Shown: positions 5,807 to 36,480 of the stretch, piece by piece
Layout of the letters: every line of letters begins with the position of its first letter
Position numbering within the stretch: position 1 is the first letter of the stretch
Source: a bacterium
Lineage (GTDB): Bacteria; Bdellovibrionota_C; UBA2361; RFPC01
Direction of reading: 5' to 3'
DNA: 46,748 nt
Assembly (NCBI GenBank): GCA_030428205.1
Contig: JAUIBK010000007.1
Location: 1 to 46,748 of the forward strand
Notes under the pieces: generated by a model
What the model was told of the DNA's origin: nothing
Seen by the model: only the letters and a program-made list of their open reading frames with translations
The model's database searches: none
Position numbers and translations under genes: made by a program

Positions 5807-5867
5807 TTATAACGCGAAGTACGCGAAGATCTCTTCCTTCGCGTACTTCGCGGCCTTCGCGTTATAA
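5807..5867. repeat. CGCGAAG-phrase hairpin downstream of actF (2 + 3 units)
   Basis: The left arm 5807-5828 reads TTATAA followed by two CGCGAAG units. The right arm 5837-5867 has three CTTCGCG units and then TTATAA. It lies between the convergent GCS2 gene and actF and could end transcription from both sides. It is nearly the reverse complement of the element at 13994-14055 on the other side of the act operon. Confidence 0.9.
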
Positions 5868-5891
5868 TAAAAGCCGAACCGATGAAAAGCC

Positions 5892-7172
5892 CTACCAGCT
5901 CTTCGTCTCGTTCTGCGCCTGCGGATGAGACACAGTGATCATCGGAAAGCGCGCCATAAACCACAAAATACTCAAAATATACATTCCGAGCATGGCAACA
6001 AAGATACCGATATCAACAAGCCCAAACGGAATAGCATCAGGGCTTATCTGAGGCATAACAATAACGTACTTCTCAAACCAAACCCCAACAAAAATAATGA
6101 GCGCAACAAAGCTCATAGTCCAAGGGTTCTTTTTCACATCTTCACTGAGCAGGGTGATAAATGGAATGACAAAAGCGCAACAGAAAGCAACATAACCAAA
6201 CGTCTTCCACGGAACCTCTCGGGTACGAATAAAGAGCCACTGGGTTTCTTCAGGCATATTGGAGTACCACTGTGGGAGAAACTGAGAGAAGAAGGTATAG
6301 CCCCAAAGCATACAGAAGCCAAAACAGAGCATTCCGAGATCCCACCGAACTTGTCGACGGAGGAGCTTAGCAAAGGTTCCATTCTTCGATGCGTAGTAAA
6401 AAGAAAAGAGAGCAAGCGCGGCCCAACCCATGTAGATGTTCCCGAGGAATTGAAAGCCACCAAACATGTTAGAGAACCAGATCTTATCCATGCCAACGAT
6501 CATTTCTGTGGCAAAAAGCGTCCAGACAATGGCATAACAAGCAACGACAACTGGTGCTAACACACTCATCTTCCATTGCGATGAGAGAATTTCCTTTTCG
6601 CCACCCCAACCGAGTGAGAGCTTCTGGTACAAACCACCCTTCCACATCTCTTTATCCGTAGCTTTCTCGCGAACCATTGCAATGTCACTTCGAAGCGAGA
6701 TACGAGTAAATCGGTAGAGAAAATAGAAAAACAAAAGAAAGAGCACAGCAAACCGAAGGTACACAAAGTTTGGCTGCATCCACCATTCTCTTCCTGGCAT
6801 AGGCTCAGTAGCCCACGGAAAGAGGTAGTCTTTACCGAGGTAAGAACCGAGGAAAAGAAAAAAAGCAACGGGAAGAAAAGCAATATGAGCTTCAGCAATT
6901 CGGCGAATAGGAACACACCACGTGGCACGAACAATCTGTACGATGGGGGTAGTCATGACAGCACCAACCGATATCCCCATAAAGAAGAGGAAGCTCGTAT
7001 AGTATGATCCCCAGACGACCCCAGGAGTATTCCCAGAGAAAAGTGACCAGGCAAAAACGACCACACCAAAGGCGATCATCAGATAACAAAGTGTATGAAT
7101 GCCACTTGTCACCTTCATCGGTGGTGTATCTATCGTTTCTTGAATATCAATGTTGAGTGCTTCTGCGTGCAT
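5892..7172 (-). CDS. actF: Alternative complex III subunit ActF (NrfD-like membrane protein)
   Basis: Polytopic membrane subunit of ACIII, the quinol:cytochrome c/HiPIP oxidoreductase that replaces the bc1 complex in several phyla. The 426-residue product has about ten hydrophobic segments, starting with HTLCYLMIAFGVVVFAWSLFSG, and the NrfD-type pattern seen also in ActC. It is the last gene of actABCDEF, 38 nt after actE, and is followed by a phrase hairpin. In many genomes cytochrome c oxidase genes follow actF; here the next gene is convergent and unrelated. The ATG at 7170-7172 gives an N-terminus rich in acidic residues before the first helix, as usual. Confidence 0.92.
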   Translation of the reverse strand: MHAEALNIDIQETIDTPPMKVTSGIHTLCYLMIAFGVVVFAWSLFSGNTPGVVWGSYYTSFLFFMGISVGAVMTTPIVQIVRATWCVPIRRIAEAHIAFLPVAFFLFLGSYLGKDYLFPWATEPMPGREWWMQPNFVYLRFAVLFLLFFYFLYRFTRISLRSDIAMVREKATDKEMWKGGLYQKLSLGWGGEKEILSSQWKMSVLAPVVVACYAIVWTLFATEMIVGMDKIWFSNMFGGFQFLGNIYMGWAALALFSFYYASKNGTFAKLLRRQVRWDLGMLCFGFCMLWGYTFFSQFLPQWYSNMPEETQWLFIRTREVPWKTFGYVAFCCAFVIPFITLLSEDVKKNPWTMSFVALIIFVGVWFEKYVIVMPQISPDAIPFGLVDIGIFVAMLGMYILSILWFMARFPMITVSHPQAQNETKSW

Positions 7173-7210
7173 ACTACATCTCTTTCGTTTATATACTAAA
7201 GCTCAATCGA

Positions 7211-7723
7211 TTATTTTCCGTTTTGAAGGTGACGCACGTAGTTAACAATATCCCAGTGCTCCTTCGGGGAAAGCTTCCAACCGTATCGTGGCATAACAGC
7301 TAAACCACCAAACTGAATAGCTGCGTACAACTCACCATCAGATTTTCCTTTGTAAAAATCAGCAGTAAGATCTGGCCCCAGCATAAGCCCTGTCTCCAAA
7401 GGGATAGCTCGCTCAAAGCCAGCTCCGGTCCACAGACCGTGACATGCAGAACAGTTAACATCCCACAGTCGTTTTCCGTTCTTGGTCGACTGCTCATCTC
7501 CCGAGATTGGATTTTTGAGCTCTGCTGCAGCAGCCTTATCCTTTACGTAGTGCTCGTTGGCACCAAGTGGGATACTCCCCTTAGGAGCCGATCGCATAAC
7601 CTCACCAACAGAGAGCTGGTCATGCACCATATCGTCATTGAATGGCAAAGCAGAAACCCCAGTAGCTCCCGCAAAGAGTATCGCGCAGAGCAAACTTATA
7701 TAGTATTTTTGCGTTACAAACAT
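7211..7723 (-). CDS. actE: Alternative complex III subunit ActE (mono-haem cytochrome c)
   Basis: Exported c-type cytochrome subunit of ACIII that carries electrons towards the terminal acceptor. It has an N-terminal signal segment (QKYYISLLCAILFAGATGVSA), a single haem-binding CSACH motif in RLWDVNCSACHGLWTGAG, and a Met in GGLAVMPRYGW that suits the sixth haem ligand. I chose the ATG at 7721-7723 because AGGAG lies six bases upstream on the minus strand. A TTG two codons earlier (7729) would overlap that ribosome binding site. The actD stop codon TAG is embedded in the same AGGAG, so actD and actE are probably translationally coupled. No clear lipobox Cys at a cleavage site, unlike some homologues. 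Confidence 0.92.
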   Translation of the reverse strand: MFVTQKYYISLLCAILFAGATGVSALPFNDDMVHDQLSVGEVMRSAPKGSIPLGANEHYVKDKAAAAELKNPISGDEQSTKNGKRLWDVNCSACHGLWTGAGFERAIPLETGLMLGPDLTADFYKGKSDGELYAAIQFGGLAVMPRYGWKLSPKEHWDIVNYVRHLQNGK

Positions 7724-7732
7724 CTCCAACTC

Positions 7733-8251
7733 CTACAGACCGTTTTCCACGTTGACCTCTTCTGCGCCTGAGTCTTCGACGCCTTTTGAAACGGCATCAA
7801 CATCAGAAGAGGGGCAACTGACGACCACTCCAAACTTGTCATAAGAAAAACGAGGATCGTACCCAAGCTTACGAAAGATATTCGGCGTACGCGTTAAGTG
7901 GCATAAGCCAGTCAGCGTTGCGATAGCACCAAAGAGAATCGTACATTCGTATCCGATCACAACAAATCCAGGGATAGAAACGATATCTTTTGCACTTACC
8001 CGTAGTGGGTAGTCGAGCGAGCACATAATCGCGAGAGTAAATCCGGCCGTAATGCCGAAAAGCGCCCCAGCCAGAGTAAACATTCGCACAGGACTTCTTG
8101 AGTCACAGGTAGCGTGTTCAAGGTGGTGGTTTGGCACAGGTGAATACACTTTGTACTCATACCCACTCCCTTTGGCGAACTCTACGGCTGACAGCGCATC
8201 ATCTAAATACGAAAAAACGCCAACTACTGCTTTATCCTTATCACCTTTCAT
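7733..8251 (-). CDS. actD: Alternative complex III subunit ActD (DUF3341)
   Basis: Small membrane subunit of ACIII. The 172-residue product has an N-terminal soluble domain (VVGVFSYLDDALSAVEFAKGSGYEYKVYSPVPNHHLEH), two hydrophobic segments at about 57-77 and 95-115 (FTLAGALFGITAGFTLAIMC and FVVIGYECTILFGAIATLTG), and a C-terminal soluble tail ending in a PSSDVDAV region. This is the DUF3341 layout. It sits between actC and actE in the canonical order, 49 nt after actC. No cofactor motif is expected or seen. Confidence 0.92.
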   Translation of the reverse strand: MKGDKDKAVVGVFSYLDDALSAVEFAKGSGYEYKVYSPVPNHHLEHATCDSRSPVRMFTLAGALFGITAGFTLAIMCSLDYPLRVSAKDIVSIPGFVVIGYECTILFGAIATLTGLCHLTRTPNIFRKLGYDPRFSYDKFGVVVSCPSSDVDAVSKGVEDSGAEEVNVENGL

Positions 8252-8300
8252 AAGCTTATTACGTCCTCTTCGTTCAGCTTCCTTTCGAAATCCACACTTC

Positions 8301-9647
8301 CTAATGATGGCCAGCTGCAGGCTTACGCATTGGGGCAGGCATGATCATCTTAATCTCCGTTATGGCTACTGCAGGGAAGAACTTCAAAAAGAGTGTCATC
8401 CACATACCAAACCAACAAAAAGCACCGATGGTAATTCCTGTCTCAACCCATGAGAAGTTATACCCACCCCACGCCGCCGGGATAAACTCTCGCGAAAGTG
8501 AAGTGAAAATAATATTGAACCGCTCAAGCCACATACCAATATTGATAATGATTGAGAGAATAAAGAGATACGTGATGTTCGTTCGCAGTGGCTTCCACCA
8601 GAGAGACAGTGGCGCGATACAGTTACAAAATGTCATACCCCAAAAAGCTGCTTTAAACTCTCCGAAAGGACGAAACCAGAACTGGTACCGCTCAAAAAGG
8701 TTATTACTATACCAAGCAGTATAAAACTCAGTCACATAGGCATACGTGACGATCCCACTCGTAAGCATAATGAGCTTACTCATGCACTCAAAGTGATCCT
8801 TTGTAACAAGTTTTTCGAGGCCGAAAATAGAACGGAGGGGTATAATGAGCGTGACCACCATAGCCACCCCAGAGAAGATCGCCCCCGCCACGAAGTACGG
8901 CGGAAAGATCGTCGCATGCCACCCAGGCACGTTCCCAACAGCAAAGTCCCAAGATACCACACTGTGAACTGAAACAACGAGCGGAGTAGCAAGAGCGGCA
9001 AAGAGAAGATACGCCGCCTCATAGTGGCTCCAGTTTTTATGGCCACCCGTCCATCCAAGAGAAGTGATCGTATAGAGAAACTTACGGAACTTTGTCTTAG
9101 CAGCATCTCGAGCCGCTGCAATGTCTGGAACAAGTCCAACGATAAAAAATAACGCCGAAACCGTAAAATAAGTTGATACAGCAAAAACGTCCCAAAGAAG
9201 TGGCGACCGGAAGTTTGGCCAGAGCGCCCGCTCGTTTGGATACGGCATCAGCCAGTAAGCAAACCAAGGTCGACCGACGTGAATGAGCGGAAAGAGCCCG
9301 GCTGTCATTACCGCAAAAACTGTCATAGCTTCTGCAAGGCGGTAAATCGGCATACGAAACTTTGCTCGAAAGAGATAAAGAACCGCGGAGATCAACGTTC
9401 CCGAGTGAGCAATACCAACCCAGAATACAAAGTTTGTAATATACACACCCCACATGATCGGGTGTGCGATACCGGCCATCCCCATACCGTGGAGAAGTTG
9501 CTGGCTGAAGCAAAATGCTCCTATAGCTACTCCACTGATACAAAGACCAAGCAGGACGTACCAGCCAACCGTAGGCGGCTCTAACATCTTGAGCACGATA
9601 TCGTTTACATCTTTATACGTTACGTTGTTTTCTTCGGCGCTTTCCAT
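8301..9647 (-). CDS. actC: Alternative complex III subunit ActC (NrfD-like quinol-binding membrane protein)
   Basis: Polytopic membrane subunit of ACIII, related to NrfD/PsrC, and thought in this family to form the quinol site next to ActB. The 448 residues contain roughly ten hydrophobic helices, beginning [21 protein letters not shown]. They include conserved-looking polar stretches such as [33 protein letters not shown] and [38 protein letters not shown] (the latter read from WDFAVG onward in this protein). The start ATG at 9645-9647 is 55 nt after the actB stop. The product ends in a short basic, His-containing tail (RKPAAGHH). Confidence 0.93.
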   Translation of the reverse strand: [448 protein letters not shown]

Positions 9648-9702
9648 AGATCCACTACAAATTGATTACCGGCAAATATCCTTCGTTAAACTCCCTTCCC
9701 CT

Positions 9703-12700
9703 CTATACCTCTCGATAACGCTTACGCTCGAGGTACTGAACAGATGGTTGAGTGTTAATGTGATGGTCTAACACCTTGTACATGCGCTTATCATGCGAGA
9801 GGTGACTTACCGTACTATCCTTATCGTTTAAGTTACCAAACGAAAGCGCTTGGGTAGGACAACCTTGCACACACGCAGGCTGCACTTCACCATCTCTTAC
9901 GAGCCGACCTTCATCCTTGGCCAGATCTTTAGCTTCATTGATGCGCTGAACACAGAAGGTACACTTCTCCATTACCCCAGCAGAACGCTTCGTCACATCG
10001 GGGTTAAGTTGAAGGTTCAACGGCTCAGGGAAGTCGAACTCATACCAGTTATAACGACGCACTTTGTATGTACAGTTATTCGAACAGTAACGAGTTCCCA
10101 CACAACGGTTATATACCATCGCATTGAGCCCCTCTTCATTGTGATACGTCGCGAAAACGGGACACACTGGCTCACAAGGCGCGTTGTTACAGTGCTGACA
10201 CATCATCGGCAAGAAATTCACCTTAAGCTCTTCAGAAGGACCTTCTTCAAAGTAACGCTCAATTCGGAGCCAAGGCATTTCACGCCCTTCGTTCCAAACA
10301 TCTTTTCCTGCCGCCGGAATATTGTTCTCTGCGTAACACGCTGTAATACACGCTGAGCAACCTGTACACGCAGCAAGATCAATCGTGAGAGTCCACTCAT
10401 AAAGTGGGTGCTCGCGCTGCTCGTACATCTGCTTTGGCTCGTGATGACCGTGGTGTCCACCGTGACCGTGATCATCGCCGTGATGGTCGTCAACATACGT
10501 TGAACGAGCCAACTCACGGTCTCCCTGAAAATCAGATCCCTGCACTTTCACAAGTTCTGGGTCACCCCTTCCACGCATGACCTCAACAAGGGCACCTTTG
10601 AGAAGTGCTCCGCCACCAGCATCATGCTCGGCAGAGATAAGGCTCATGACGTTTCCAGCGTGCGCCACCTGGTCAGCATACCGCCCAAGGTGTGCGTGTC
10701 CGTACCCAAGAGGCACCGCAACAACGCCAGGGTGTACGTGATCTGTAACATAAGCAGGAACATTCACTTCCCCGTAGTGGTTTCGCACCACAACAAAGTC
10801 TCCTTGCTTGATACCACGCGACTTTGCCGTATCAGGATGAATCTCAGCCCAAGAATCCCAAACAATCTGTGTTACAGGATCTGGAATCTCGTGAAGCCAC
10901 GGTCTATTTGCAGCTCGTCCATCAAAGCTCTTCACGGACGGGAACGGAAGTAGCATAAGGCCATCTTTAGCGCCCTTGTCACTGACGGCATCTCCATCAA
11001 GAGAGATCTTGTACGCCGCAGAGCTCACCTTTACTCGAGCTCGCTCTTCAAGCTTTGAAGTGTCGTAATACCCACCAGCTTCAAGGGTCTTTCTCCACCA
11101 GTTTTCAAAGGACCCACCAGCAGAAGCTTCATTGTAGATATCTTGCCAACTCGCTTTGACGTACGCCTCATACGAATCAGTACCAAGAGCAGATCCAGCA
11201 CCTTGAGAAAGTGTAAGGAGCGAATCTCCAAACGCACGAGTATCAAACACAGGGGTCATCACCGGCTGAATGAGAGTATTCACTCCTTCATACGGTCGGC
11301 TATCTCCCCAACTCTCTAACGAGTGATGAGAAGGAAGGATAAGATCTGCTAACTGACTTGTTTCATCAAGCAGAGAGGAGAAGCTCACAAGGTAGGGATT
11401 GCCCGACTCAGCGTTTTTCGCCTTCCCTTCTTTTACCGCATAATCAAAGCCATAATCTTTTGGCAGGGTAAAAGATGGGTTTGAGCCGTCAACGAGGACA
11501 AGAGAGAGGTCTCCCTTTTTCATCTTCTTAATAGCAGCACGCACCTTCTTCATTGAAGTCTTCGGCTTGCGCATTGAGGAGATGTTGACCGTGCTTCCAA
11601 CGTTAGAAAGGATAAGGTTCATGAAGTGCGTTACTGCCATAAGTGAAACTGCACTTGAGCCACTCGCAGCACTTCCACCAGCAACAACAAGAGAGTGCTT
11701 AGCTTTGCTGAGGCGCTCTGCAACGAGCAGGATTTTCTCCTCTGGCACCTCTGAATCCTTTGAAGCTTCAGCAAGCGAAACACCTCGAACCATGCTCTTA
11801 ATATTGGAGAGCACGTCACCAGCAAGGTTCTTTCCAAGCCCCCTATCAACAAGCGCTTTGAGCACACCTAGTGCAAGCGCAAGCTCTGAGCCTGGCTTAT
11901 TTCGTAGCCATGCATCTGCATTCGCTGCAGTGAGCGACAATCGTGGTTCGACATGAAAGACTTTGACTGGATGCTCGCGACGACGCCCGTCGGCCCAACC
12001 GCGCGCAAATTCTACAGGGGAGACCCAGGTCTCAAGAAAATCTGCACCAAAGTTTAAGACCACATCAGCTTTATCAAAACGGTAACGTGGAATTCCGTAC
12101 GTTCCAAAAACAAGCTCGGATGCTTCAGCCAACGCAACAGGCTGCAAAGAGTCATACGTTACATGATCAGCTCGAAAGCTTTTTGAGAATTCACCGAGAA
12201 GCTCGTCCATGGCACCAGTGTGTTCACCAGTAACAACGCCAACTTTTCCTTTGGAGGCTTTCAGGGCTGTGGCCACACGTTTATACGCTTCTTCCCACGA
12301 GATCGGTCGGAACTTTGATTCGCCTGCTACCCTCTCAAGTGGCTGGCGGACGCGATCGGGGTCATACAACCCTTGAAGCGCTGATTGACCAAGCGAACAC
12401 AAACCACCGCGGTTAAGCGGATTCTCGCCGTTACCTTCAATCTTGACAGCTCGACCTTCACGAGTACGAACAGAAATACCGCACCCTGCAGAACACTCCG
12501 TGCACGTTGACCGGTACCATACAGCGGTGCCGGGGATGGCGTCGTCTTGCCCCTTAACGTTGGGATAAACTTTCTGCTTTACGTTATCGGCACAACCAGC
12601 AACCCCAGCAGCAGACGCTGCTCCAAGCACCTTGAGAAACGATCGCCGGCTCATCGAACCATCGGCAGACTTATTTGAATTAATTTGGACTAAACCGCTA

Positions 12701-12717
12701 TCCATCAACTCGCTCAT
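9703..12717 (-). CDS. actB: Alternative complex III subunit ActB (Tat-exported iron-sulfur protein)
   Basis: The 1004-residue periplasm-facing electron-transfer subunit of ACIII. It starts with a Tat signal (SRRSFLK, residues 23-29) and lipobox-like VAGC (Cys42), so it may be a Tat lipoprotein. The first two thirds resemble molybdopterin oxidoreductases, with an N-terminal C-x2-C-x3-C cluster motif and a later Cys in GGLCSLGQ. The C-terminal third is a four-cluster ferredoxin domain: CTGCSACITACYAENN, CQHCNNAPCEPVCPV, CVGTRYCSNNC, CTFCVQRI and CVQGCP. Between them, about residues 741-759, is a His-rich linker (HHGDDHGHGGHHGHH). ATG with AGGAG six bases upstream. In studied ACIII the first domain lacks molybdenum; whether its Cys motif holds a cluster here is open. 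Confidence 0.95.
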   Translation of the reverse strand: MSELMDSGLVQINSNKSADGSMSRRSFLKVLGAASAAGVAGCADNVKQKVYPNVKGQDDAIPGTAVWYRSTCTECSAGCGISVRTREGRAVKIEGNGENPLNRGGLCSLGQSALQGLYDPDRVRQPLERVAGESKFRPISWEEAYKRVATALKASKGKVGVVTGEHTGAMDELLGEFSKSFRADHVTYDSLQPVALAEASELVFGTYGIPRYRFDKADVVLNFGADFLETWVSPVEFARGWADGRRREHPVKVFHVEPRLSLTAANADAWLRNKPGSELALALGVLKALVDRGLGKNLAGDVLSNIKSMVRGVSLAEASKDSEVPEEKILLVAERLSKAKHSLVVAGGSAASGSSAVSLMAVTHFMNLILSNVGSTVNISSMRKPKTSMKKVRAAIKKMKKGDLSLVLVDGSNPSFTLPKDYGFDYAVKEGKAKNAESGNPYLVSFSSLLDETSQLADLILPSHHSLESWGDSRPYEGVNTLIQPVMTPVFDTRAFGDSLLTLSQGAGSALGTDSYEAYVKASWQDIYNEASAGGSFENWWRKTLEAGGYYDTSKLEERARVKVSSAAYKISLDGDAVSDKGAKDGLMLLPFPSVKSFDGRAANRPWLHEIPDPVTQIVWDSWAEIHPDTAKSRGIKQGDFVVVRNHYGEVNVPAYVTDHVHPGVVAVPLGYGHAHLGRYADQVAHAGNVMSLISAEHDAGGGALLKGALVEVMRGRGDPELVKVQGSDFQGDRELARSTYVDDHHGDDHGHGGHHGHHEPKQMYEQREHPLYEWTLTIDLAACTGCSACITACYAENNIPAAGKDVWNEGREMPWLRIERYFEEGPSEELKVNFLPMMCQHCNNAPCEPVCPVFATYHNEEGLNAMVYNRCVGTRYCSNNCTYKVRRYNWYEFDFPEPLNLQLNPDVTKRSAGVMEKCTFCVQRINEAKDLAKDEGRLVRDGEVQPACVQGCPTQALSFGNLNDKDSTVSHLSHDKRMYKVLDHHINTQPSVQYLERKRYREV
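10441..10496 (-). other. His/Asp/Gly-rich linker within actB
   Basis: This coding segment specifies a run of about 18 residues made almost only of His, Asp and Gly, placed between the molybdopterin-like domain and the ferredoxin-like domain of ActB. It could bind metal or be a flexible hinge; the sequence cannot decide. Confidence 0.75.
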
Positions 12718-12782
12718 GAGACTCCTTCAACTTGAGTAGTGACCACACGTGGCACAATTCATTAGCAGCGTAAAACAGGCAC

Positions 12783-13463
12783 CTAATAGTGGCAGGTTAA
12801 ACAATCTATGCTCGTTCCTTCCTCTCGGTGACAACTTAAACACCACCCCATCTTCATTGATGAAACTCTTTCAACTTTTTCCATCTCGGGCACTTGACCG
12901 TGACAAGAGTGACAACTCACTCCCGCTTTTACGTGCCGTTTGTGATTAAACTTCACATGATTTGGCATAACGTGAACTCGTTCCCACGGAATCGGCTCAC
13001 CGCTTTCCCAATACTCAGAGAGTTTCGCTATCTCTTTTTGCTGCCACTCCTCACGCCCCTTTACGAGTGTGCCGTGACACCCCATGCACGTTTCCACTTC
13101 AGGAATCGCCGCAAAACTCGACTTGGTGACAGACCAGTGACAATACTGACACTCCATGCGATTCCCCTGCACATGAGTCACATGACTAAATGCAATAGGT
13201 TGTTCGGGAGTGTAGCCCTTGGCCCGCTCCTCGGGTCCAAAGTAATGAAAGTGATCGATGAGGTTGAGGTCCCACAACGCAGCCTGGCCGTCATTCCAGA
13301 CACCAGTACGCTTTCCTACTTCCGGGTATTCAGCAAAAACTGACGAACCACTTTTTGCGTTACCTGATTCGGCAAGTAAGCGGCTGTCGCTACTTGTACC
13401 GTTGAGAAGGAAGAAAAATGAGAGCCCAACAAACAACAGAAGAATGAATGCCTTACGAACCAC
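12783..13463 (-). CDS. actA: Alternative complex III subunit ActA (pentahaem cytochrome c)
   Basis: Membrane-anchored multihaem cytochrome of ACIII. The 226-residue product has an N-terminal hydrophobic anchor (KAFILLLFVGLSFFFLLNG) and exactly five CXXCH motifs (CQYCH, CMGCH, CHSCH, CLSCH, CLTCH), the last at the extreme C-terminus. Extra histidines (FSHVTHVQ, FNHKRHVKAG) suit bis-His ligation. The start is GTG at 13461-13463 with an AGAGAG-type ribosome binding site; no nearby ATG fits. First gene of the act operon, preceded by 707 bp that should contain its promoter, and followed by actB after 65 nt. Confidence 0.94.
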   Translation of the reverse strand: MVRKAFILLLFVGLSFFFLLNGTSSDSRLLAESGNAKSGSSVFAEYPEVGKRTGVWNDGQAALWDLNLIDHFHYFGPEERAKGYTPEQPIAFSHVTHVQGNRMECQYCHWSVTKSSFAAIPEVETCMGCHGTLVKGREEWQQKEIAKLSEYWESGEPIPWERVHVMPNHVKFNHKRHVKAGVSCHSCHGQVPEMEKVERVSSMKMGWCLSCHREEGTSIDCLTCHY

Positions 13464-13816: not shown

Positions 13817-14147
13817 CTCTTGCACTTGCTCTTCATCTTGCTCTTGCTCTTACGACGCTAAAGGTTGGAGCAGATCTAGGCCTATAAGAAGAGAAAGCAG
13901 CTTGAGACCCATAAGGTGATGTTTGTTAAACACAGGAACCCTATCCAGGATTTAAGCTTCTCCTTCTTGATCTGACTCCGCCTGGGTACACATTTATAAC
14001 GCGAAGTACGCGAGGTACGCGAAGATCGACTCTCTTCGCGTACTTCGCGTTATAAAACTTTACCGTGATATCTGCATAAACTATGAGATTGCCCCTTACC
14101 CGCATCCTGCTCCAAGTCTTGAGCAAGATGAAGAGCAAGTGCAAGAG
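13817..14147. repeat. 27-bp inverted repeat enclosing about 280 bp
   Basis: Positions 13817-13843 are the exact reverse complement of 14121-14147. The left copy continues as six degenerate tandem hexamers (CTCTTG, CACTTG, CTCTTC, ATCTTG, CTCTTG, CTCTTA). The enclosed DNA has no gene but contains a second palindrome. I see no flanking target duplication. Confidence 0.85.
13994..14055. repeat. CGCGAAG-phrase hairpin upstream of the act operon (3 + 2 units)
   Basis: The left arm has TTATAA and three units (CGCGAAG, CGCGAGG, CGCGAAG) joined by TA. The right arm 14034-14055 has two CTTCGCG units and TTATAA. The right arm is the exact reverse complement of the left arm at 5807-5828, so the two elements are inverted copies on either side of actABCDEF. 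It lies downstream of nadB and may end the aromatic operon. Confidence 0.9.
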
Positions 14148-16908: not shown

Positions 16909-16996
16909 CCATTTTCTTAAACTTTTTTCTCCGTGGCATAGCTATTTGACATAAAGTACAGAACTTTGCCACGGAGAAAAAAGTTCAAGAAAATGG
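16909..16996. repeat. 30-bp near-perfect hairpin between aroD and aroC
   Basis: Arms 16909-16938 and 16967-16996 match at 29 of 30 positions around a 28-nt loop. The core is CCACGGAG with an A7/T7 neighbour. It fits the CACGGAG form of the phrase family, although with a single unit per arm. It is 18 nt after the aroD stop, inside the operon. Confidence 0.9.
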
Positions 16997-23280: not shown

Positions 23281-23354
23281 TTTAACCGCAAAGACGCTAA
23301 AGCGCAAAGAAAAATAGACACGCTCCTTTGCGTCTTAGCGTCTTTGCGGTTAAA
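23281..23354. repeat. CGCAAAG-phrase hairpin between trpB and trpA
   Basis: The left arm reads TTTAACCGCAAAG and continues with GCTAAAG and CGCAAAG units. The right arm is its reverse complement and ends CTTTGCGGTTAAA. Arms are about 28 nt and nearly perfect. It lies inside the trp-aro operon, 33 nt after the trpB stop and 51 nt before the trpA start, so full termination here would cut off nine downstream genes. Confidence 0.92.
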
Positions 23355-26010: not shown

Positions 26011-26022
26011 TACCTACTCTGT

Positions 26023-29038: not shown

Positions 29039-29057
29039 AGGCGAATTGTACTTAGGT

Positions 29058-29136: not shown

Positions 29137-29177
29137 CAGAGGAGAGATGAAACGGGATGTTGGAACGATTGCTTCAT
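29127..29177 (-). CDS. trpL: Candidate trp leader peptide with tandem Trp codons
   Basis: A short frame on the minus strand ending 88 nt before trpE. From the ATG at 29175-29177 it reads MKQSFQHPVSSLLWWA and then stops, so two Trp codons lie next to the end, as in known trp leader peptides. From an upstream in-frame ATG (29202-29204) it would be 25 residues with a third Trp at position 2. The -10-like TACAAT at 29184-29189 places the transcript start at or near the shorter ATG, so I prefer the short, leaderless form. Too short for standard gene calling; supported by position, Trp codons and the pairing arms that overlap them. Confidence 0.65.
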   Translation of the reverse strand: MKQSFQHPVSSLLWWA

Positions 29178-29183
29178 AACGGT

Positions 29184-29212
29184 ATTGTAACAGGTTTGCC
29201 ACATGATAGCAA
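29184..29212 (-). promoter_or_regulatory. Probable trp operon promoter
   Basis: On the minus strand, TTGCTA (29207-29212, four of six matches to the sigma70 -35 box), a 17-nt spacer, and TACAAT (29184-29189, five of six to the -10 box). The predicted start falls about seven bases on, at the ATG of the leader frame. I recognise no operator. Confidence 0.5.
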
Positions 29213-29224
29213 CGAACACCACCT

Positions 29225-29305
29225 CTCCTAGTCTTAGGCCTAGTCCTTGTCCTGCTCTCATCTTTTTCTTTAGAGCAAGACAAGGACTAGGCCTAAGACT
29301 AGGAG
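29225..29305. repeat. 27-bp perfect hairpin of CTAGTC/CTTAGG phrases between trp and ribD
   Basis: 29225-29251 is the exact reverse complement of 29279-29305. Pairing can go on inward (TGCTCT with AGAGCA) after one mismatch, leaving a T-rich loop. It lies between the divergent trp promoter and ribD, so it is not at a gene end. The phrase is shared with the hairpin at 2832-2883. Confidence 0.9.
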
Positions 29306-29334
29306 CACTGAAGGAATCTGCTATACTCTCAACT

Positions 29335-30375: not shown

Positions 30376-30471
30376 GCTTTTCTTCCGGTTACTTCTCGAT
30401 TATTTGAGTAGCGCCTCGAATCCGCTTACACTCTACCGTAGCGTATTAAATGGAATTTGCTGGGGATAGTC

Positions 30472-31989
30472 GTGGGAAACCACTCTGATTTGGGCAACAG
30501 CCCCGAAATACCAGACCAACCTAAGGTCGACGAACCATTCTCGTTTGGAGAGCTCGCCGAGCTAGCTCAAGCCGAACAATTTCTCGACAGCTGTAGCAGA
30601 GAGCAATTAGAGGAGCTCAAAGACGCTCTCTCTGGGCAAACTGAGGTACTCAAAGTTCTCAATAGTGAAAGAGGCGCTCTGTTTAAGCGTTTAAAAGTCG
30701 CTGACGACGGAACTGTAGAGCTATACATTCCTGAACCAGACGAGCAATTCATACTCGCAGAGTCCGGAAAAGCATACGCGCAGGACTTCCTGCTAGCAGA
30801 TCTTCCTCGACTACAGCAGTTTGCGTCAACGATCCCCCCAATGACGGAGACAACGCAGCTCTCCATCTGTATCCCTGCTGCAGCTTTTGATGAGCGTGAA
30901 ACAATCTATCAAGCGCTCTCTTCTTTTACGACACAGACTGCAAATCCAAAGAGCTTTGAAATCGTTGTCTTTGCCAACAATCCGATAACAGAAGCGCCTA
31001 ATGATCGTGAACGTGCGATGGGAACGATCTTAGAAGTACAACGTTTTCAGCAAGAGCATCCTGAAATGCAGACAAACCTCCTTGTTGGTGAATGCGATCG
31101 CTCCTTTATGACCATCGGACTCGTTCGCAAAACGCTCACTGACACTGTTTTGCTTCGAGCCCTTGAGAAAGTACAAGGAGACGAGGACCACATCATCGTA
31201 AGTTGTGACGCTGATACTTGCGGTGTTCACCGACAGTTTGTTGAAAATTATATCAATCGATTTCGTGATAATCCAAAAACGGACGCATTCTCAGGGATGC
31301 TTGACTACGATCCACGCTCTTATGTAAACAATCCACTCGTTTATGTTGGGTCCAGGGTTTGGATGATGCTTGATGCAGCATCGAGAGTATACGAGAAGAA
31401 CATTCTCGGTCCTGGAGCAAACTTTGCTTTTCGTGCAAGCTCCTATGCCGCTGTCAACGGATACATCGAGACTCCAATTGCTGAAGATGTAAACTTAAGA
31501 AGGAAGTTTATTTTTTTACGAGAAGGCGCAGAAGAATTCACACCCGTTCAATTTGCACACGCTTCCTCTCGACTCTTTACATCGAGTAGACGCTCTGTTC
31601 GAGCTGTCGAGGCTGGCTATGCTCCAATTGAACAGTGGGCCATACCAGAAACAAAGTTCAGTGAAACCGATGAAGATATTCGAGTAGAGGCTCACCGCTA
31701 TATCGACTGCGTTGATGAGCAACTCTCAAGTCCCACATTTCAACAAGATCTGCAAAACGTTATTAATCGCACTCTTGCAATCAAAGGGTGTTTCGGCGAA
31801 AAGAGCAACGTTCCAGAGGCAGCTCTCGAGCGGATTCTTACTGATCGTTTAGGAATTTCATTTGTCCGCAAAGGAGATAACGAGGTAGAAATCACAAGCA
31901 TCGAAGGATTTCTAGAGCATTATCGAGAGTATCAAAGCAAAGGGCTTCACAACTTCGCTCGAACAACCGGGCTTCCTCCCTTCACCTAA
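30472..31989 (+). CDS. Family 2-like glycosyltransferase with an unknown N-terminal extension
   Basis: GT-A fold glycosyltransferase: LSICIPAAAFDERETIYQALSSFTTQT starts the nucleotide-binding domain and is followed by FEIVVFANNPI, and HIIVSCDADTCGVHRQFVENYI carries a D-A-D metal motif at 246-248. NILGPGANFAFRASSYAAVNGY and PIAEDVNLRRKFIFLREG match the acceptor-loop region. The first 125 or so residues are acidic and helical-looking with no recognisable domain, and the last 130 are likewise unassigned. No membrane segments. I chose GTG 30472 (GGGGA six bases upstream) over TTG 30457. Sugar and acceptor are unknown. It lies 96 nt after ribD and may be cotranscribed; a phrase hairpin follows it. 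Confidence 0.75.
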   Translation: MGNHSDLGNSPEIPDQPKVDEPFSFGELAELAQAEQFLDSCSREQLEELKDALSGQTEVLKVLNSERGALFKRLKVADDGTVELYIPEPDEQFILAESGKAYAQDFLLADLPRLQQFASTIPPMTETTQLSICIPAAAFDERETIYQALSSFTTQTANPKSFEIVVFANNPITEAPNDRERAMGTILEVQRFQQEHPEMQTNLLVGECDRSFMTIGLVRKTLTDTVLLRALEKVQGDEDHIIVSCDADTCGVHRQFVENYINRFRDNPKTDAFSGMLDYDPRSYVNNPLVYVGSRVWMMLDAASRVYEKNILGPGANFAFRASSYAAVNGYIETPIAEDVNLRRKFIFLREGAEEFTPVQFAHASSRLFTSSRRSVRAVEAGYAPIEQWAIPETKFSETDEDIRVEAHRYIDCVDEQLSSPTFQQDLQNVINRTLAIKGCFGEKSNVPEAALERILTDRLGISFVRKGDNEVEITSIEGFLEHYREYQSKGLHNFARTTGLPPFT

Positions 31990-32001
31990 TATGAATTCTT
32001 T

Positions 32002-32071
32002 TGAACCACGGAGGGGAATTATAACACTCTCCGTGAAATCCTCCGCGGGCTCCGAGCTCTCCGTGGTTAAA
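32002..32071. repeat. CACGGAG-phrase hairpin after the glycosyltransferase gene (1 + 4 units)
   Basis: The left arm has AACCACGGAG. The right side has four units (CTCCGTG, CTCCGCG, CTCCGAG, CTCCGTGG) and then TTAAA. Only the outermost pairing is perfect; the inner units offer alternative partners for the single left unit. It lies 12 nt after the stop, so termination is a plausible use. Confidence 0.85.
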
Positions 32072-32168
32072 AAATCATATCAGAGGGGCGACACAAAGAG
32101 ATAGGGATTGCCTTTAACTCTCTAGCACCTCACAATACGTTAAGACAGCAGTAAACAGGAGCCCTACG

Positions 32169-32723
32169 GTGAAAAACATTCTCTTCCTCCTTCTCCTCTT
32201 CATTCCCTTCGGCCAAGCTCAAGCTGACATGAAACCGATCCTCCATGAATTCTTCGCCAAAACACTCATGGGAAAGACTATTCAATTTTCTGATTATGCT
32301 GGCAAAGTAGTCCTCATTACCAACATTGCACTAAAATGTGGAACGACTCCTCAGCTAGGAGCGCTTCAAGAGCTCTACGAAGATTATAATGAAAAAGGCC
32401 TCATCGTCCTCGGCTTTCCTTCAAGAGATTTTGCCGGAAAAATGGAACCAACTGATCCCGTCGAAATAGGCGAGATGTGTAAAAAAGATTTTGGCGTGTC
32501 GTTTCCTATTTTTACCCCTGGTCACGTTCGAGGCCAGAAGAGCCAACCTGTCTTTAAATTTCTTACTTCAACATCACACGACGACCATCAAGGAGAGGTC
32601 CACTTCAATTTCGAAAAGTTTCTTATAGACAAAGAAGGAAGGGTTCGCCACCGTTTTGGCCCGTTTACGAGCGCAAAGAGCAACAAGCTCCGTCGTGAAA
32701 TTGAGTCGTTGTTAGAGCAATAA
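32169..32723 (+). CDS. Exported glutathione-peroxidase-family protein with altered catalytic tetrad
   Basis: Thioredoxin-fold peroxidase family. A signal peptide (KNILFLLLLFIPFGQAQA) implies periplasmic location. The family core is present: VVLITNIALKCGTTPQLGALQELYEDY with the peroxidatic Cys57, then LIVLGFPSRDFAGKMEP, FGVSFPIF, and VHFNFEKFLIDKEGRVRHRFGP. The usual Cys-Gln-Trp-Asn tetrad is only half kept: the Gln position in FPxNQF is Asp87, and the Trp of WNF is Phe146, while Asn147 stays. Start GTG 32169 with AGGAG eight bases upstream. The lipoprotein gene follows after 3 nt. Thiol peroxidase activity is inferred and may be changed by the substitutions. Confidence 0.85.
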   Translation: MKNILFLLLLFIPFGQAQADMKPILHEFFAKTLMGKTIQFSDYAGKVVLITNIALKCGTTPQLGALQELYEDYNEKGLIVLGFPSRDFAGKMEPTDPVEIGEMCKKDFGVSFPIFTPGHVRGQKSQPVFKFLTSTSHDDHQGEVHFNFEKFLIDKEGRVRHRFGPFTSAKSNKLRREIESLLEQ

Positions 32724-32726
32724 ATC

Positions 32727-33485
32727 ATGAAACACCTCTCATTCTTCCGTTTCCTCCTCTTTCTCCTACTCCTAGCCTTTTCAGGCTGTAGCGTGCTCCG
32801 TTCAGCCCCTGCAATGCTCACTTCCTTTCTCCCTAAAAGAGACCTTGTCAAAGAAGACCGGGAACGTGCTCCGTTTCACGGCTATTGGGTTTACGACGCC
32901 AAAGGGTACGAGCAACTACGACATGACTATAAAAAAATCTATGTTGCTCCAATTGATATTAGCAATGTAGTTCATCAGTATGAAAAACGGTTCGGCAACC
33001 CCGAGCGAAGAGAGGACCGCATAGGAGAGGCTGAGGAGCTTGCTCAATATTTTCAACAAAAACTCATCCTCGAACTCCAATCAGATCGTGGTAAGTTTTT
33101 AGAAGTTGTTGACACTCCTGGTCCCGAGACACTCTCCCTTCGACTCGCCTTGACTCATATCGTTCCTACTAGCCCAGGAGTGAATATCATCGGTACCGTA
33201 GCAGGATTCCTTGTTCCTGGTGGCGGGTTAGTGAAACTTGCTGGAGAAGGAAGTATTGCAATGGAAGGGTATGTTACAGAAGAGCCTTCTCCTCTTTTTC
33301 CTCTCGAGCAATTTAACGATCGCGAGGGTCAAAAGGTTTCGGCCTTTAGCCTCAAAGACTACCAACTCTACGCTCACATCAGACTGGCAATTGATGAATG
33401 GGCAATGCAACTGACTGAACTTCTTTCGACTCCAGCGGAGCAGACCATTGAAGACTCAGACCTTCTCTCTCTTGATCCGCTTTAG
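32727..33485 (+). CDS. Outer-membrane-type lipoprotein, DUF3313-like
   Basis: A 252-residue protein with a lipoprotein signal (SFFRFLLFLLLLAFSGC; Cys in the lipobox). The body has YKKIYVAPIDIS, a charged helical stretch around EDRIGEAEELAQYFQQKLILELQ, LSLRLALTHIVPTSPGVNIIGTVAGFLVPGGGLVKLAGEGSIAMEGYV, and a helical C-terminal end. This layout resembles DUF3313 lipoproteins, whose function is unknown. It starts 3 nt after the peroxidase-like gene, so the two are almost certainly cotranscribed, and it ends 3 nt before the convergent thrS stop with no terminator between. Confidence 0.75.
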   Translation: MKHLSFFRFLLFLLLLAFSGCSVLRSAPAMLTSFLPKRDLVKEDRERAPFHGYWVYDAKGYEQLRHDYKKIYVAPIDISNVVHQYEKRFGNPERREDRIGEAEELAQYFQQKLILELQSDRGKFLEVVDTPGPETLSLRLALTHIVPTSPGVNIIGTVAGFLVPGGGLVKLAGEGSIAMEGYVTEEPSPLFPLEQFNDREGQKVSAFSLKDYQLYAHIRLAIDEWAMQLTELLSTPAEQTIEDSDLLSLDPL

Positions 33486-33488
33486 AAG

Positions 33489-35267
33489 TTAAATCTCAAC
33501 CTCCGGATCGCAGTCCATTAACCGCTCATCACGAAGACGTTGCATACGTGCATAAAATTCTTCGCGAGGCATGGTGAGCTGTTCTTTCACACAGTAACGG
33601 CGCAGAGTAATCGTTCCGTTTTCTACTTCATTACCACCAACAATGATAATGTTTGGGATTTTGCTCGTGACTGCTTCGCGAATTTTCTTATTAAAAGACT
33701 TATCGCTTGTGTCAACTTGAACGCGGAAGAGATCACTTTCAAGTTGGTCCTTAATATCATTTACATAATCACCGAACTTATCAGCAACAGGAATAAGGGC
33801 TACCTGCACTGGGGCAAGCCATGTTGGAAAAGCTCCCCCAAGGTGCTCAACAAGCACGGCAAAGAAACGCTCCATCGAACCACATAGTGCACGGTGAATC
33901 ATGTATGGACGTTTATGCTCGCCATCAGCATCAACGTATTTAAGATCGAAACGCTCAGGGAGATTAAAATCAAATTGTATCGTGCTGAGCTGCCACTCTC
34001 TATCAAGGGCATCGTTCACACAAATATCAATCTTTGGACCATAAAACGCCCCGTCTCCTTCGTTCAGCGAAAAAGGGAGCCCGCTTCGTTCTAAGGCTTC
34101 TCGCAGAGCTTTTTCTGAGGCCTCCCATTTCTCCTCCTCTCCCACACGCTTTTCAGGGCGAGTACTGAGGTAGAGGTGAAAATTCTTTAAGCCAAAATCA
34201 CGGAGTAGCCCCACGCTAAAGTCGAGCACTTTGTCGATCTCTTCTGGCATCTGGTCTTCGCGGCAAAAGAGGTGCGCATCGTCTTGGGTAAAACCTCGCA
34301 CACGAGTAAGGCCTGAGAGAGTTCCGCTTCTCTCAAATCGGTACACGGTGCCCCACTCAGCAAAACGAAGAGGAAGATCGCGATACGAGCGAATGGAGCT
34401 GGCAAAGATTTTACAGTGGAAGGGGCAGTTCATCGGCTTGAGGTAGTAGGGCTGTCCCTCAACCTCAATCGGAGCAAACATGCCATCTTTATAAAAAGAG
34501 AGGTGCCCACTCGTCTCCCAAAGACTTGCTTTTCCGATATGTGGCGAATACACAAACTCATACCCACCTTCGATATGCATATTACGAGCGTGCTCTTCAA
34601 TTCGGTGGCGAATCAGCCCACCTTTTGGATGCCAAAGAATAAGCCCTGAGCCGACTCCATCGTGATCGATGCTATAGAGATCCAACTCTGTACCAAGCTT
34701 TCTGTGGTCGCGCTCTTTAGCAAGTTCGCGTTTCTTTATGTAAGCTTTAAGATCTTTTTTGTTCTTAAATGCAAGTGTATAAATACGAGTCAGTTGAGGG
34801 TTATTTTCATCGCCTCTCCAATAGGCACCAGCAAGAGAGTCGACCTTAAAGCAATCAGCAGGAATTTGTCCTGTATGCTCAACGTGTGGGCCACCGCACA
34901 TATCAGTAAAGGGACCGTTGGTATAAAAACCGATTTCTGCCTCGCCACCTTCGTGAAGCTCCTTACAATACTCTACTTTGTACTGTTCGCCTTGCTCATC
35001 AAGAAAGGTAATGGCGTCTTGTGCTTTCCTCGATTCATGCACAAATTCCTGCTTCTCAGAGATAATGCGCCGCATACGCTTTTCGATGTCAGCAAAGTCA
35101 TCGTCAGAGAGAGGCTCTTCGAGATCAAAATCGTAGTAGCATCCCGTATCAATCGGTGGGCCAAAGGCGAGCTTAGCCTTGGGGCGGATTTCAAGAACCG
35201 CTTGGGCGAGAACATGTGCCAGAGAGTGGCGAATCTTATAAAGGGGGTCGTCTTGTACTTTTTCCAT
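33489..35267 (-). CDS. thrS: Threonyl-tRNA synthetase lacking the TGS domain
   Basis: Charges tRNA-Thr. The 592-residue product starts directly at the editing domain (YKIRHSLAHVLAQAVLEIRP with the HxxxH motif, then CGGPHVEHTGQIPADCFKV), whereas the enteric enzyme has about 60 more N-terminal residues forming a TGS domain. The class II catalytic core is intact: GSGLILWHPKGGLIRHRIEEH, motif 2 FAEWGTVYRFERSGTLSGLTRVRGFTQDDAHLFC, PMNCPFHCKIF, motif 3 with LCGSMERFFAVLVEH, and a C-terminal anticodon-binding domain (VQVALIPVADKFGDYV). No in-frame start further upstream would restore a TGS domain, because the hairpin region intervenes. Single gene. Confidence 0.95.
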   Translation of the reverse strand: MEKVQDDPLYKIRHSLAHVLAQAVLEIRPKAKLAFGPPIDTGCYYDFDLEEPLSDDDFADIEKRMRRIISEKQEFVHESRKAQDAITFLDEQGEQYKVEYCKELHEGGEAEIGFYTNGPFTDMCGGPHVEHTGQIPADCFKVDSLAGAYWRGDENNPQLTRIYTLAFKNKKDLKAYIKKRELAKERDHRKLGTELDLYSIDHDGVGSGLILWHPKGGLIRHRIEEHARNMHIEGGYEFVYSPHIGKASLWETSGHLSFYKDGMFAPIEVEGQPYYLKPMNCPFHCKIFASSIRSYRDLPLRFAEWGTVYRFERSGTLSGLTRVRGFTQDDAHLFCREDQMPEEIDKVLDFSVGLLRDFGLKNFHLYLSTRPEKRVGEEEKWEASEKALREALERSGLPFSLNEGDGAFYGPKIDICVNDALDREWQLSTIQFDFNLPERFDLKYVDADGEHKRPYMIHRALCGSMERFFAVLVEHLGGAFPTWLAPVQVALIPVADKFGDYVNDIKDQLESDLFRVQVDTSDKSFNKKIREAVTSKIPNIIIVGGNEVENGTITLRRYCVKEQLTMPREEFYARMQRLRDERLMDCDPEVEI

Positions 35268-35342
35268 TCCGTACTCCGAGATTAAGTACAGGAAAAGATA
35301 ACGAATCTAAGAGAGAAAGGGAAGGCGAGAACATTTCCCTCG

Positions 35343-35432
35343 GTGTTCCTCTGTGATGATTTGAAAATCTATGCGCCTCTGTGTTGAAAAGAAAATCACA
35401 GAGGCGCTAGTCCGGGCTAGAGGAACACAGAG
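35343..35432. repeat. CACAGAG-phrase compound hairpin upstream of thrS
   Basis: Inner stem: 35373-35383 (GCGCCTCTGTG) pairs with 35397-35407 (CACAGAGGCGC). The outer GTGTTCCT near 35344 pairs with AGGAACAC near 35421. Phrases are CCTCTGTG on the left and CACAGAGG on the right. It is directly after the small coiled-coil gene and 76 nt or more before thrS, both on the minus strand. Confidence 0.85.
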
Positions 35433-35437
35433 GGGCG

Positions 35438-35671
35438 TTAGGCACACTTCTTTTCAAGCACGTCAACACGGCCTTCCAACCTGGCTGACTGCTCAGTCAA
35501 AACAAGATACTCCTGCTCTCGCTTTTCATTCTCTCGATAGAGCCCATCAAGCTGCACAGCAACCTCGTCAAAGCGCTTGTTCATTTCGCTTCGAAGTGGC
35601 TCAATCTCTTGTTGCAGCTCTTGCTGAAGGAGGACTTGAAGAGCCTTTAAATCTGCGTCATTAAGAGGCAT
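35438..35671 (-). CDS. Small coiled-coil protein downstream of ssb
   Basis: A 77-residue frame starting 12 nt after the ssb stop on the same strand. After the first ten residues it is nearly all helix-forming, with hydrophobic residues spaced as in a coiled coil (LKALQVLLQQELQQEIEPLRSEMNKRF and EYLVLTEQSARLEGRVDVLEKK). A G-rich GGGG lies about ten bases before its ATG. Proteins of this RFDEV...L style are common and unassigned. I judge it real from its position, coding-like composition and the hairpin directly after its stop. Function unknown; a structural or adaptor role is only a guess. Confidence 0.65.
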   Translation of the reverse strand: MPLNDADLKALQVLLQQELQQEIEPLRSEMNKRFDEVAVQLDGLYRENEKREQEYLVLTEQSARLEGRVDVLEKKCA

Positions 35672-35683
35672 CTGAAAATGCCC

Positions 35684-36154
35684 CTAGAACGGAATATCGT
35701 CGTCGTCGAATGTGACCTCGTCAGCAGAGACCGTTCCACCGTTTGCAGCAACGAGTGAGTCGGCAGGTTTGGCGAAGGAACTCGGTTGAGGTGCTGGACC
35801 ACTTGAGGAGTACGAGCTATCGCCTCTTCCTCCAACAAACTGAACCGTATTGCCAACAACTTCAGTTGTCCAGCGGTCCTTTCCTTCTTTGTCTTGCCAC
35901 TTACGTGTCTGAATGCGGCCTTCTATGAAAGCTTCGCTTCCCTTCTTAAGATAGTTAGAAACATTTTCAGCGGTTTTTCCAAAAACAACCACATTGTGCC
36001 ACTCGGTATGCTCTGTCCAGTTACCGCTCTGCGGATCTTTGCGGCGCTCACCAGTGGCAAAACTAAAATTTGCTACCGGTGTTTGGCTCTGTGTGTAACG
36101 AAGCTCTGGATCTTTTCCGAGGCGACCTAACAATATGACTTTATTTACTCCCAT
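35684..36154 (-). CDS. ssb: Single-stranded DNA-binding protein
   Basis: Binds single-stranded DNA in replication and repair. The 156-residue product begins MGVNKVILLGRLGKDPELRYTQSQTPVANFSFAT, has the OB-fold core TEWHNVVVFGKTAENVSNYLKKGSEAFIEGRIQTRKWQDKEGKDRW, a Ser/Pro/Gly-rich linker, and the conserved acidic tip DDDDIPF that recruits partner proteins. It is divergent from yceD across a 326-bp region and is followed by the small coiled-coil gene. Confidence 0.97.
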   Translation of the reverse strand: MGVNKVILLGRLGKDPELRYTQSQTPVANFSFATGERRKDPQSGNWTEHTEWHNVVVFGKTAENVSNYLKKGSEAFIEGRIQTRKWQDKEGKDRWTTEVVGNTVQFVGGRGDSSYSSSGPAPQPSSFAKPADSLVAANGGTVSADEVTFDDDDIPF

Positions 36155-36480
36155 ACTTACTTACTCCTTGCGTGTGTGTGATATACTTCATGAGACGTCA
36201 AAACGACGTCTTCCAATAGGAAGTCGTGGAATCATACTCAAAGTTGCTTGAAAATTACAGAGGAAGTGCATTTTATAGAAAGAAATGCAGTCTCTGTTTG
36301 TCCCCTATCTAACGCGAAGAACACGAAGAACGCGAAGTTGAAGTAATAACAGCTCGTTACCCTTCGCAGTCTTCGCGTTAAACACCCCCCGAAACCGAAA
36401 GAACACAGACCGGGAGGTGACTAAGTGCCTAGAAGAAGGTATCATCTTAAGCATCACCAGTAGTTCATACAGGAGGTCTC
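36155..36480. other. Divergent ssb / yceD spacer
   Basis: A 326-bp divergent region, which should hold both promoters. The only structure I can support is the CGCGAAG hairpin at 36310-36381. No gene. Confidence 0.55.
36310..36381. repeat. CGCGAAG-phrase hairpin between ssb and yceD (3 + 2 units)
   Basis: Left arm: TAACGCGAAG, then CACGAAG and CGCGAAG units at 9-nt spacing joined by AA. Right arm: CTTCGCA, CTTCGCG, TTA. The loop is about 24 nt. The genes on either side diverge, so a simple terminator role does not fit this copy. Confidence 0.85.

What the first reader, a model, noticed from the sequence alone, without database searches (positions are those of the whole stretch)
5807..36381. 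A family of intergenic hairpins made of one degenerate 7-nt phrase, CRCRRAG
Seven hairpins (5807-5867, 13994-14055, 16909-16996, 23281-23354, 32002-32071, 35343-35432, 36310-36381) differ in sequence, but their arms are mostly tandem copies of a unit that fits C-R-C-R-R-A-G: CGCGAAG, CACGAAG, CGCAAAG, CACGGAG, CACAGAG. The outer edge is usually (T)TAAC or TTATAAC, with the mirror image at the far end. Units repeat about every 7-9 nt. All are intergenic. Their gene contexts differ (convergent, co-directional, inside an operon, divergent), so terminator function alone does not explain them. A phrase that changes by coordinated substitution in every unit and in both arms implies concerted copying, slippage or strong selection on the stem. 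I have seen similar intergenic repeats in other bacterial genomes but know of no settled function.
Basis: partly seen in the sequence, partly recalled or inferred. Interest (0 to 1): 0.8.

Follow-up and report, generated by a model that had tools for sequence, protein, structure and literature searches.

The report
Gene-less hairpins of a nuclease element
The short hairpins scattered between genes here have the same repeated-unit arms that enclose the only GxxExxY gene (a predicted nuclease) found in this genome, and they are likely stripped-down copies of a tiny mobile DNA element that would be spread by that nuclease; the same kind of arm turns up in at least a dozen bacterial phyla.

Summary
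The hairpins are real: a two-unit CRCRRAG pattern occurs 147 times in the genome against 3 for the reversed control. Six of the seven listed hairpins belong to the phrase; 16909-16996 is a separate uniform repeat. They are intergenic without orientation bias, so termination alone does not explain them. The key find lies outside the window: the one PF13366 (GxxExxY) gene found in the genome sits in the loop of the same inverted repeat, 436 bp with identical arms. Inward-facing arrays flank 10 of 29 GxxExxY genes of an even 80-genome draw on both sides, and 0 of 800 control ORFs; 23 of 25 genomes with the phrase have the gene against 12 of 55 without. In another genus gene arms and at least two dozen solo hairpins share a different phrase. 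The protein is predicted to be a Cas4/RecB-like nuclease. Best reading: a one-gene nuclease element and its gene-less, MITE-like copies. No clean empty site or target duplication was found, and hairpin counts do not follow the gene in the own phylum, so movement by the nuclease is inferred.

The parts
5807..5867 (.). Solo hairpin, CGCGAAG units, period 9; left arm one unit shorter than right
13993..14056 (.). Solo hairpin, CGCGAAG/CGCGAGG units; left arm identical over 28 nt to the arms of the GxxExxY element
23281..23354 (.). Solo hairpin, CGCAAAG/CGCTAAAG units, period about 8, between a PALP-family (tryptophan synthase beta-like) gene and the tryptophan synthase alpha gene, both on the minus strand; it overlaps the called TTG start of the latter, whose Pfam match begins at residue 34
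32002..32071 (.). Solo hairpin, AACCACGGAG type with imperfect interior
35337..35434 (.). Solo hairpin, CACAGAG units in reverse polarity; by eye the same type as L049:17630-17686
36310..36380 (.). Solo hairpin, CGCGAAG/CACGAAG units, imperfect right arm
16909..16996 (.). Not of this family: copy of a uniform ~88-nt palindrome CCATTTTCTTGAACTTTTTTCTCCGTGGC; arm core at 7 other places in 6 held stretches
824..905 (.). Sister kind: hairpin with hexamer-type (CCTNNT) arms, the kind that encloses PF05635 genes
2832..2883. Probably sister kind, CCCTCTTAGTCCTAGGCTT (classed 'other' by the script; hexamer likeness read by eye)
29225..29305 (.). Sister kind, hexamer-array hairpin CTCCTAGTCTTAGGCCTAGTCCTTGTCCTGCTCT

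Best explanation
The hairpins carry the same arms that enclose the one GxxExxY (predicted nuclease) gene found in the genome, in a 436-bp inverted repeat, and they are likely the gene-less (MITE-like) copies of that element, predicted to be copied in trans by the nuclease together with host replication and repair. Shown: shared arms; position of the gene exactly in the loop (start codon next to one arm, reading frame running on through the other); association of gene and arrays in many genomes; dispersed gene-bearing copies with unrelated flanks; purifying selection between some of them; conserved PD-(D/E)XK residues. Inferred: that the folded hairpin (lagging-strand or cruciform) is what the nuclease recognises and cuts, and that repair of the cut copies the hairpin into AT-rich intergenic sites. 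Slippage of the 8-9-nt units and copying of one arm from the other would then keep both arms alike while the phrase drifts.
Against: No clean empty site: two hairpins compared in a pair of Chryseolinea species were both occupied, and congeners of G035 gave no clean junction. No target-site duplication in 29 copies. Loops of 16 solo hairpins resemble the gene interior only weakly (z 3.0 against shuffled loops, but 9 of 300 random interiors do as well). In the own phylum the 9-nt pattern count does not differ between the 12 genomes with and the 33 without the gene (Mann-Whitney p = 0.37): G016 and G021 have 63 matches each without a detected gene; G005, G013, G020 have the gene and no match. Solo and best-gene phrases could be compared by eye in 8 genomes of the draw whose places were listed: alike in G069 and G108, partly in G124, different in G104, G134, G146, G166 and mostly in G145. 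G020's GTTTCTGG arms have no solo copy. The repeated unit in G018 and g15 extends about 100 nt beyond one arm. Facing arrays 151-2000 bp apart enclosed a GxxExxY gene in 2 of 10 cases in the 119 hairpin loci and 0 of 1 in G000's held stretches; a third GxxExxY ORF in those loci (L158) has arrays that are not a simple inward pair. dN/dS is 0.30, 0.61 and 1.02 (dS 0.01) for three other pairs. A shared nuclease fold shows no mobilising activity.
Confidence: 0.6

Rival explanations
1. The hairpins came first and are spread by something else; the GxxExxY gene is a homing-type gene that settles in hairpin loops, the arms being its target and its homology for repair.
For: The gene sits precisely between arms; solo hairpins greatly outnumber gene-bearing ones (66 solo pairs against 2 with the gene in 119 loci); solo loops do not look like clear deletion products; genomes with hairpins but no detected gene exist, and counts do not follow the gene in the own phylum.
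Against: It leaves the spread of the solo hairpins unexplained. In genus g15 the repeated unit of the gene-bearing copies extends beyond the arms, so there the arms moved with the gene.
Confidence: 0.21
2. REP/REPIN-type palindromes moved by a RAYT (Y1 tyrosine transposase).
For: Small intergenic palindromes in high copy; G000 has four Y1_Tnp matches, three over the cut-off.
Against: None of the four Y1_Tnp loci has a cluster of three or more units in the stretch fetched (up to 1.5 kb each side, less at a contig end); no GTAG or CGTC tag is evident in the listed copies (by eye); REPs favour co-directional and convergent gaps (PMC3733652, section read), these show no bias.
Confidence: 0.05
3. 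RNA or DNA elements kept by selection (terminators, mRNA 3' stabilisers, nucleoid sites), arms kept alike by compensatory change.
For: Linkers and units co-vary between arms; strong folds.
Against: No orientation bias; arms are often unequal, and one orthologous copy is much less regular in a sister species; the phrase differs by lineage together with GxxExxY arms; no Rfam match at gathering score in the window.
Confidence: 0.08
4. Local slippage and template switching makes such hairpins anew in many genomes, without any mobile element.
For: Unequal unit numbers between arms and between species at one site.
Against: Identical 28-nt arms at unrelated loci of one genome; the tie to one protein family over many genomes.
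Confidence: 0.06

Closest known systems
REP/REPIN sequences and RAYT transposases
   Same: Many small intergenic palindromes per genome, hypothesised to be moved by a single-gene enzyme whose gene is flanked by the repeat (PMC3733652: abstract and one section read)
   Different: Partner is a PD-(D/E)XK-type protein, not a Y1 transposase; arms are tandem 8-9-nt units; the gene lies inside one inverted repeat; no GTAG/CGTC tag seen; no orientation bias
Bacterial MITE-like repeats (RU-1, RU-2)
   Same: Small mobile sequences in many intergenic sites, likened to MITEs (PMC2759123 seen in the search listing only)
   Different: No target-site duplication found here; no parental transposase identified; arms made of a drifting short phrase
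23S rRNA intervening sequences with an S23/four-helix-bundle ORF (PF05635)
   Same: Selfish unit of similar size with one small ORF (Coxiella IVS 428 nt, PMC4990558, abstract read); the element here is 436 bp arm to arm
   Different: Not in rRNA; different protein; many intergenic gene-less copies. Several PF05635 genes in this phylum sit in their own hexamer-array inverted repeats
TAACTGA heptamer direct repeats (Beggiatoaceae, Cyanobacteria, Bacteroidetes)
   Same: Short intergenic heptamer arrays in distantly related phyla (PMC4679880, abstract and outline read)
   Different: Direct repeats rather than hairpins; the abstract reports no flanked gene family
Cas4 / RecB / lambda-exonuclease / Hjc nucleases
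   Same: Predicted fold and the E, D, ExK, QxxxY residues
   Different: Stand-alone ~120-aa domain whose gene lies in a hairpin; no PADLOC model matched the four tested proteins at E 0.001

Membership tests
REP/REPIN-RAYT | RAYT (Y1_Tnp) gene flanked by the same palindrome | tested here: not met
   four Y1_Tnp loci in G000, no cluster of three or more units in the fetched stretches
REP/REPIN-RAYT | GTAG or CGTC tag at the foot of the palindrome | tested here: not met
   aligned outer edges read TAAC...GTTA (by eye)
MITE | terminal inverted repeats without coding capacity, many dispersed copies | tested here: met
MITE | target-site duplication | tested here: inconclusive
   no consistent duplication in 29 copies; palindromic AT-rich edges could hide a 2-4-nt one
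MITE | a related full-length element with a mobilising enzyme in the same genome | tested here: inconclusive
   full-length arm-gene-arm copy found; that its enzyme mobilises is untested
GxxExxY (TIGR04256 / PF13366) | match above the curated cut-off | tested here: met
   L200 protein 140.2 bits against cut-off 35; 138.8 bits against Pfam cut-off 22
PD-(D/E)XK nuclease, Cas4/RecB branch | E, D, ExK and QxxxY residues in an alpha-beta core (motif recalled) | tested here: met
Intrinsic terminator | stem followed by a U tract, placed at gene ends | tested here: inconclusive
   no excess in convergent gaps; flanks are AT-rich, by eye mostly ATAAAATTT-like but a few have T runs; no terminator scan was run
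23S rRNA intervening sequence | located in 23S rRNA with a PF05635 ORF | tested here: not met
   no Rfam (rRNA) match in the window and the looped gene is PF13366

The most novel reading that the evidence does not exclude
A class of bacterial mobile DNA spread by a stand-alone Cas4-like nuclease instead of a transposase: a one-gene unit of about 440 bp whose arms are self-renewing arrays of an 8-9-nt phrase, with a large train of gene-less hairpins in at least a dozen phyla, lineages having their own phrases; and a parallel class with the same build that uses the four-helix-bundle (23S-IVS) protein and a hexamer phrase.
Probability: 0.48. Interest if true: 0.9.

Novelty: new variant of a known kind. 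Interest (0 to 1): 0.8.

Why it matters
It would give a cause to widespread unexplained intergenic hairpins of environmental bacteria and a role to GxxExxY proteins, of which one search alone scored 7980 relatives (a capped list). The PMC searches made here listed four different papers with these names or accessions, of which I read the passages in two; neither passage tests a function. It predicts that a nuclease without transposase chemistry can spread DNA, and it may put the 23S IVS protein family under the same plan. Both claims can be tested with a single small gene and a 60-nt hairpin.

Tried and rejected
RAYT association: no hairpin cluster near the four Y1_Tnp genes. PF05635 as the CRCRRAG partner: 0 of 21 loci with inward CRCNRAG arrays on both sides; it has its own hexamer arrays (2 of 21 with at least 3 hexamer pairs on both sides against 0 of 291 controls). 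Target-site duplication: not found. Solo hairpins as simple internal deletions of the gene-bearing copy: only weak support. Empty sites: Chryseolinea pair and the g15 genus, none clean. Phage or plasmid carriage: 0 of 50,697 phage records and 7 of 72,556 plasmid records hold a relative at E 1e-5; none in viral contigs, a search that reaches close relatives only. A solved-structure sequence search gave only weak matches (best E 0.013), and Foldseek none below E 0.001. Defence-system library: no match for four proteins. Remnants of GxxExxY in eight other wide loops: none. The de novo repeat script first timed out and was rewritten.

Selection effects: L267-L296 come from genomes chosen because they have the hairpin arm (50 of the 88 assemblies counted were submitted; the other 38, among them the MAGs titled Bordetella parapertussis, were left out). 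L345-L373 are the best match of each of 29 genomes out of 35 with a match. In one search, 3 of the 23 own-phylum loci lack a full flank and were dropped. Fisher's test is not corrected for kinship. Stretches were picked from hits.
Full report
What is there. The seven inverted repeats exist. Six are arrays of CRCRRAG-type units; 16909-16996 is a copy of another, almost invariant palindrome. The two-unit pattern occurs 147 times in the 3.76-Mb genome, 3 times when read backwards. In 839 kb of held DNA (window, L035-L054 taken without regard to hits, L055-L074 chosen partly for hits) there are 53 clusters against 3 for the control unit. 44 fold strongly; 41 lie between called ORFs, 2 in one, 1 unplaced. 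Gene orientation around them is as expected from the gaps alone (p = 0.36).

Anatomy. The main type is T(A)TAAC-GCGAAG-NN-CGCGAAG-NN-CGCGAAG-loop-mirror image (the C of TAAC is the first base of the first unit), period 9. The two-base linkers and unit variants agree between the two arms of one hairpin more than between hairpins (67% against 31% for the outer linker, 74% against 42% for the second unit, 27 hairpins; over all 28 nt 23.6 against 22.6 identical bases). Where arms differ it is often by one whole unit, as at 5807-5867. Among 29 copies the second base outside the arms is complementary in 69% against 37% when partners are shuffled; no target duplication is seen.

The gene in the loop. 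Looking for a partner, I tested Y1 transposases (no), PF05635 and PF13366. The one PF13366 gene found in the genome (G000:C32:25959-26309) is enclosed by the same arms, 28 nt identical on both sides to three solo hairpins, 436 bp from arm to arm. Its start codon abuts one arm and its frame runs out through the other, giving a tail RTSRTSRYNFQNE that the model leaves at low confidence. Pfam and NCBIfam name it PDDEXK_3 / GxxExxY.

How general it is. Among 29 GxxExxY loci from an even draw of 80 genomes of one phylum (centre: the genome of L104, an Acidobacteria record), 10 have at least two inward units on both sides and 18 on at least one; in 271 and 529 control ORFs the two-sided count is 0 and the one-sided 13 and 29. 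In the 80 genomes the three-unit pattern is in 25 and PF13366 in 35; 23 of 25 against 12 of 55. In the own phylum the picture is weaker: 2 of 20 genes have two-sided CRCNRAG arrays, partly because other phrases are used, and the 9-nt pattern count does not differ between genomes with and without the gene (p = 0.37). One scan found the 8-nt-period arm in at least 119 stretches, whose record titles name at least a dozen phyla or candidate phyla; 66 facing pairs within 150 bp lie in those loci, and 45 of 50 such genomes have the gene.

Phrase and gene. In genus g15 of the own phylum the GxxExxY arms are of another phrase, ACAAAGAGNGCNGCGAG...; a DNA search meant for empty sites instead gave 61 matches in G039, 58 of them in the arms, and 20 stretches picked from these gave 28 inverted repeats, 27 with that phrase (24 inward-facing, 3 between neighbouring hairpins). 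G042's AAACACAGGAG arms recur in a solo hairpin and G052's CACGGATT arms on seven other contigs. Against this, G020's second arm phrase has no solo copy, and among the 8 genomes of the draw whose places were listed and whose gene arms could be read, the main solo phrase differs from the best gene's arms in G104, G134, G146, G166 and mostly G145, agrees in G069 and G108 and partly in G124 (by eye). Genomes may hold several lineages; only the best gene per genome was read.

Is it mobile? Two copies in G035 and one in G032 are about 87-90% identical over about 570 bp and stop in unrelated flanks. dN/dS is 0.09 and 0.10 for two of the three pairs and 0.30 for the third; a pair of G018 copies gives 0.61 and an orthologous pair 1.02 on dS 0.01. 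The G032 copy has a stop. G018 has several near-identical pieces at contig ends. The repeated unit there and in g15 reaches about 100 nt past one arm. No empty site was found: in Chryseolinea both orthologous hairpins are present in the sister species, one much less regular, one with a different unit number.

How it would work. My preferred model: the arm array folds in single-stranded or cruciform DNA; the nuclease recognises and opens it, in cis or in trans; repair synthesis copies the hairpin into AT-rich intergenic DNA. Solo hairpins would be the majority because a 60-nt palindrome is the smallest unit that the enzyme can act on. Slippage by whole units and copying between arms would keep the arms alike and let the phrase drift by lineage. 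Everything in this paragraph is inference.

Relation to known things. It would work like REPIN-RAYT (gene-less palindromes, one enzyme gene) but fails the RAYT and tag tests; it has MITE-like form but no duplication was found. Its build resembles the 23S IVS. Several PF05635 genes here are themselves inside inverted hexamer arrays, and hairpins of that type are in this window (824-905, 29225-29305, probably 2832-2883). PMC searches for GxxExxY, PF13366, TIGR04256, for six repeat strings and for hairpin elements with nucleases showed, in their listings, no description of this association; subscription papers and preprints were not searchable.

Noticed in passing
window 824-905, 29225-29305 (probably 2832-2883); L221, L235, L236, L228: A second hairpin family with 6-nt-period arms (CCTNNT) that encloses PF05635 four-helix-bundle (23S-IVS) genes in inward polarity; mean hexamer pairs left/right 1.95/1.14 against about 0.13 in controls.
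   Followed up: partly
window 16909-16996; L042:5115, L047:16038, L052:5266, L054:4332, L055:18118, L071:4604 and 14189: Nearly invariant ~88-nt palindrome CCATTTTCTTGAACTTTTTTCTCCGTGGC, arm core in the window and 7 other places; no partner gene sought.
   Followed up: no
window 7736-13463: ActD, NrfD-like subunit, large molybdopterin/Fe-S protein and multihaem cytochrome side by side: looks like alternative complex III.
   Followed up: no
L099:4243-4523 and 6492-6776: In one acidobacterial genome, two wide hairpin loops (about 280 nt) share, by eye, an interior in opposite orientation, without GxxExxY remnants.
   Followed up: no
G021:C7, C2, C3, C12, C13: PF05635 matches in divergent inverted pairs a few hundred bases apart, repeated at several loci of one genome.
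   Followed up: no
L088, L106, L129, L133: Metagenome contigs titled Bordetella parapertussis carry the hairpin arm; the titles may be wrong (not tested).
   Followed up: no
L200:1435-1863, L207:1444-1863: The arms are read in frame into the protein ends (RTSRTSR, TTKDAKDTK), so such peptides in annotations may be read-through of hairpin arms.
   Followed up: no
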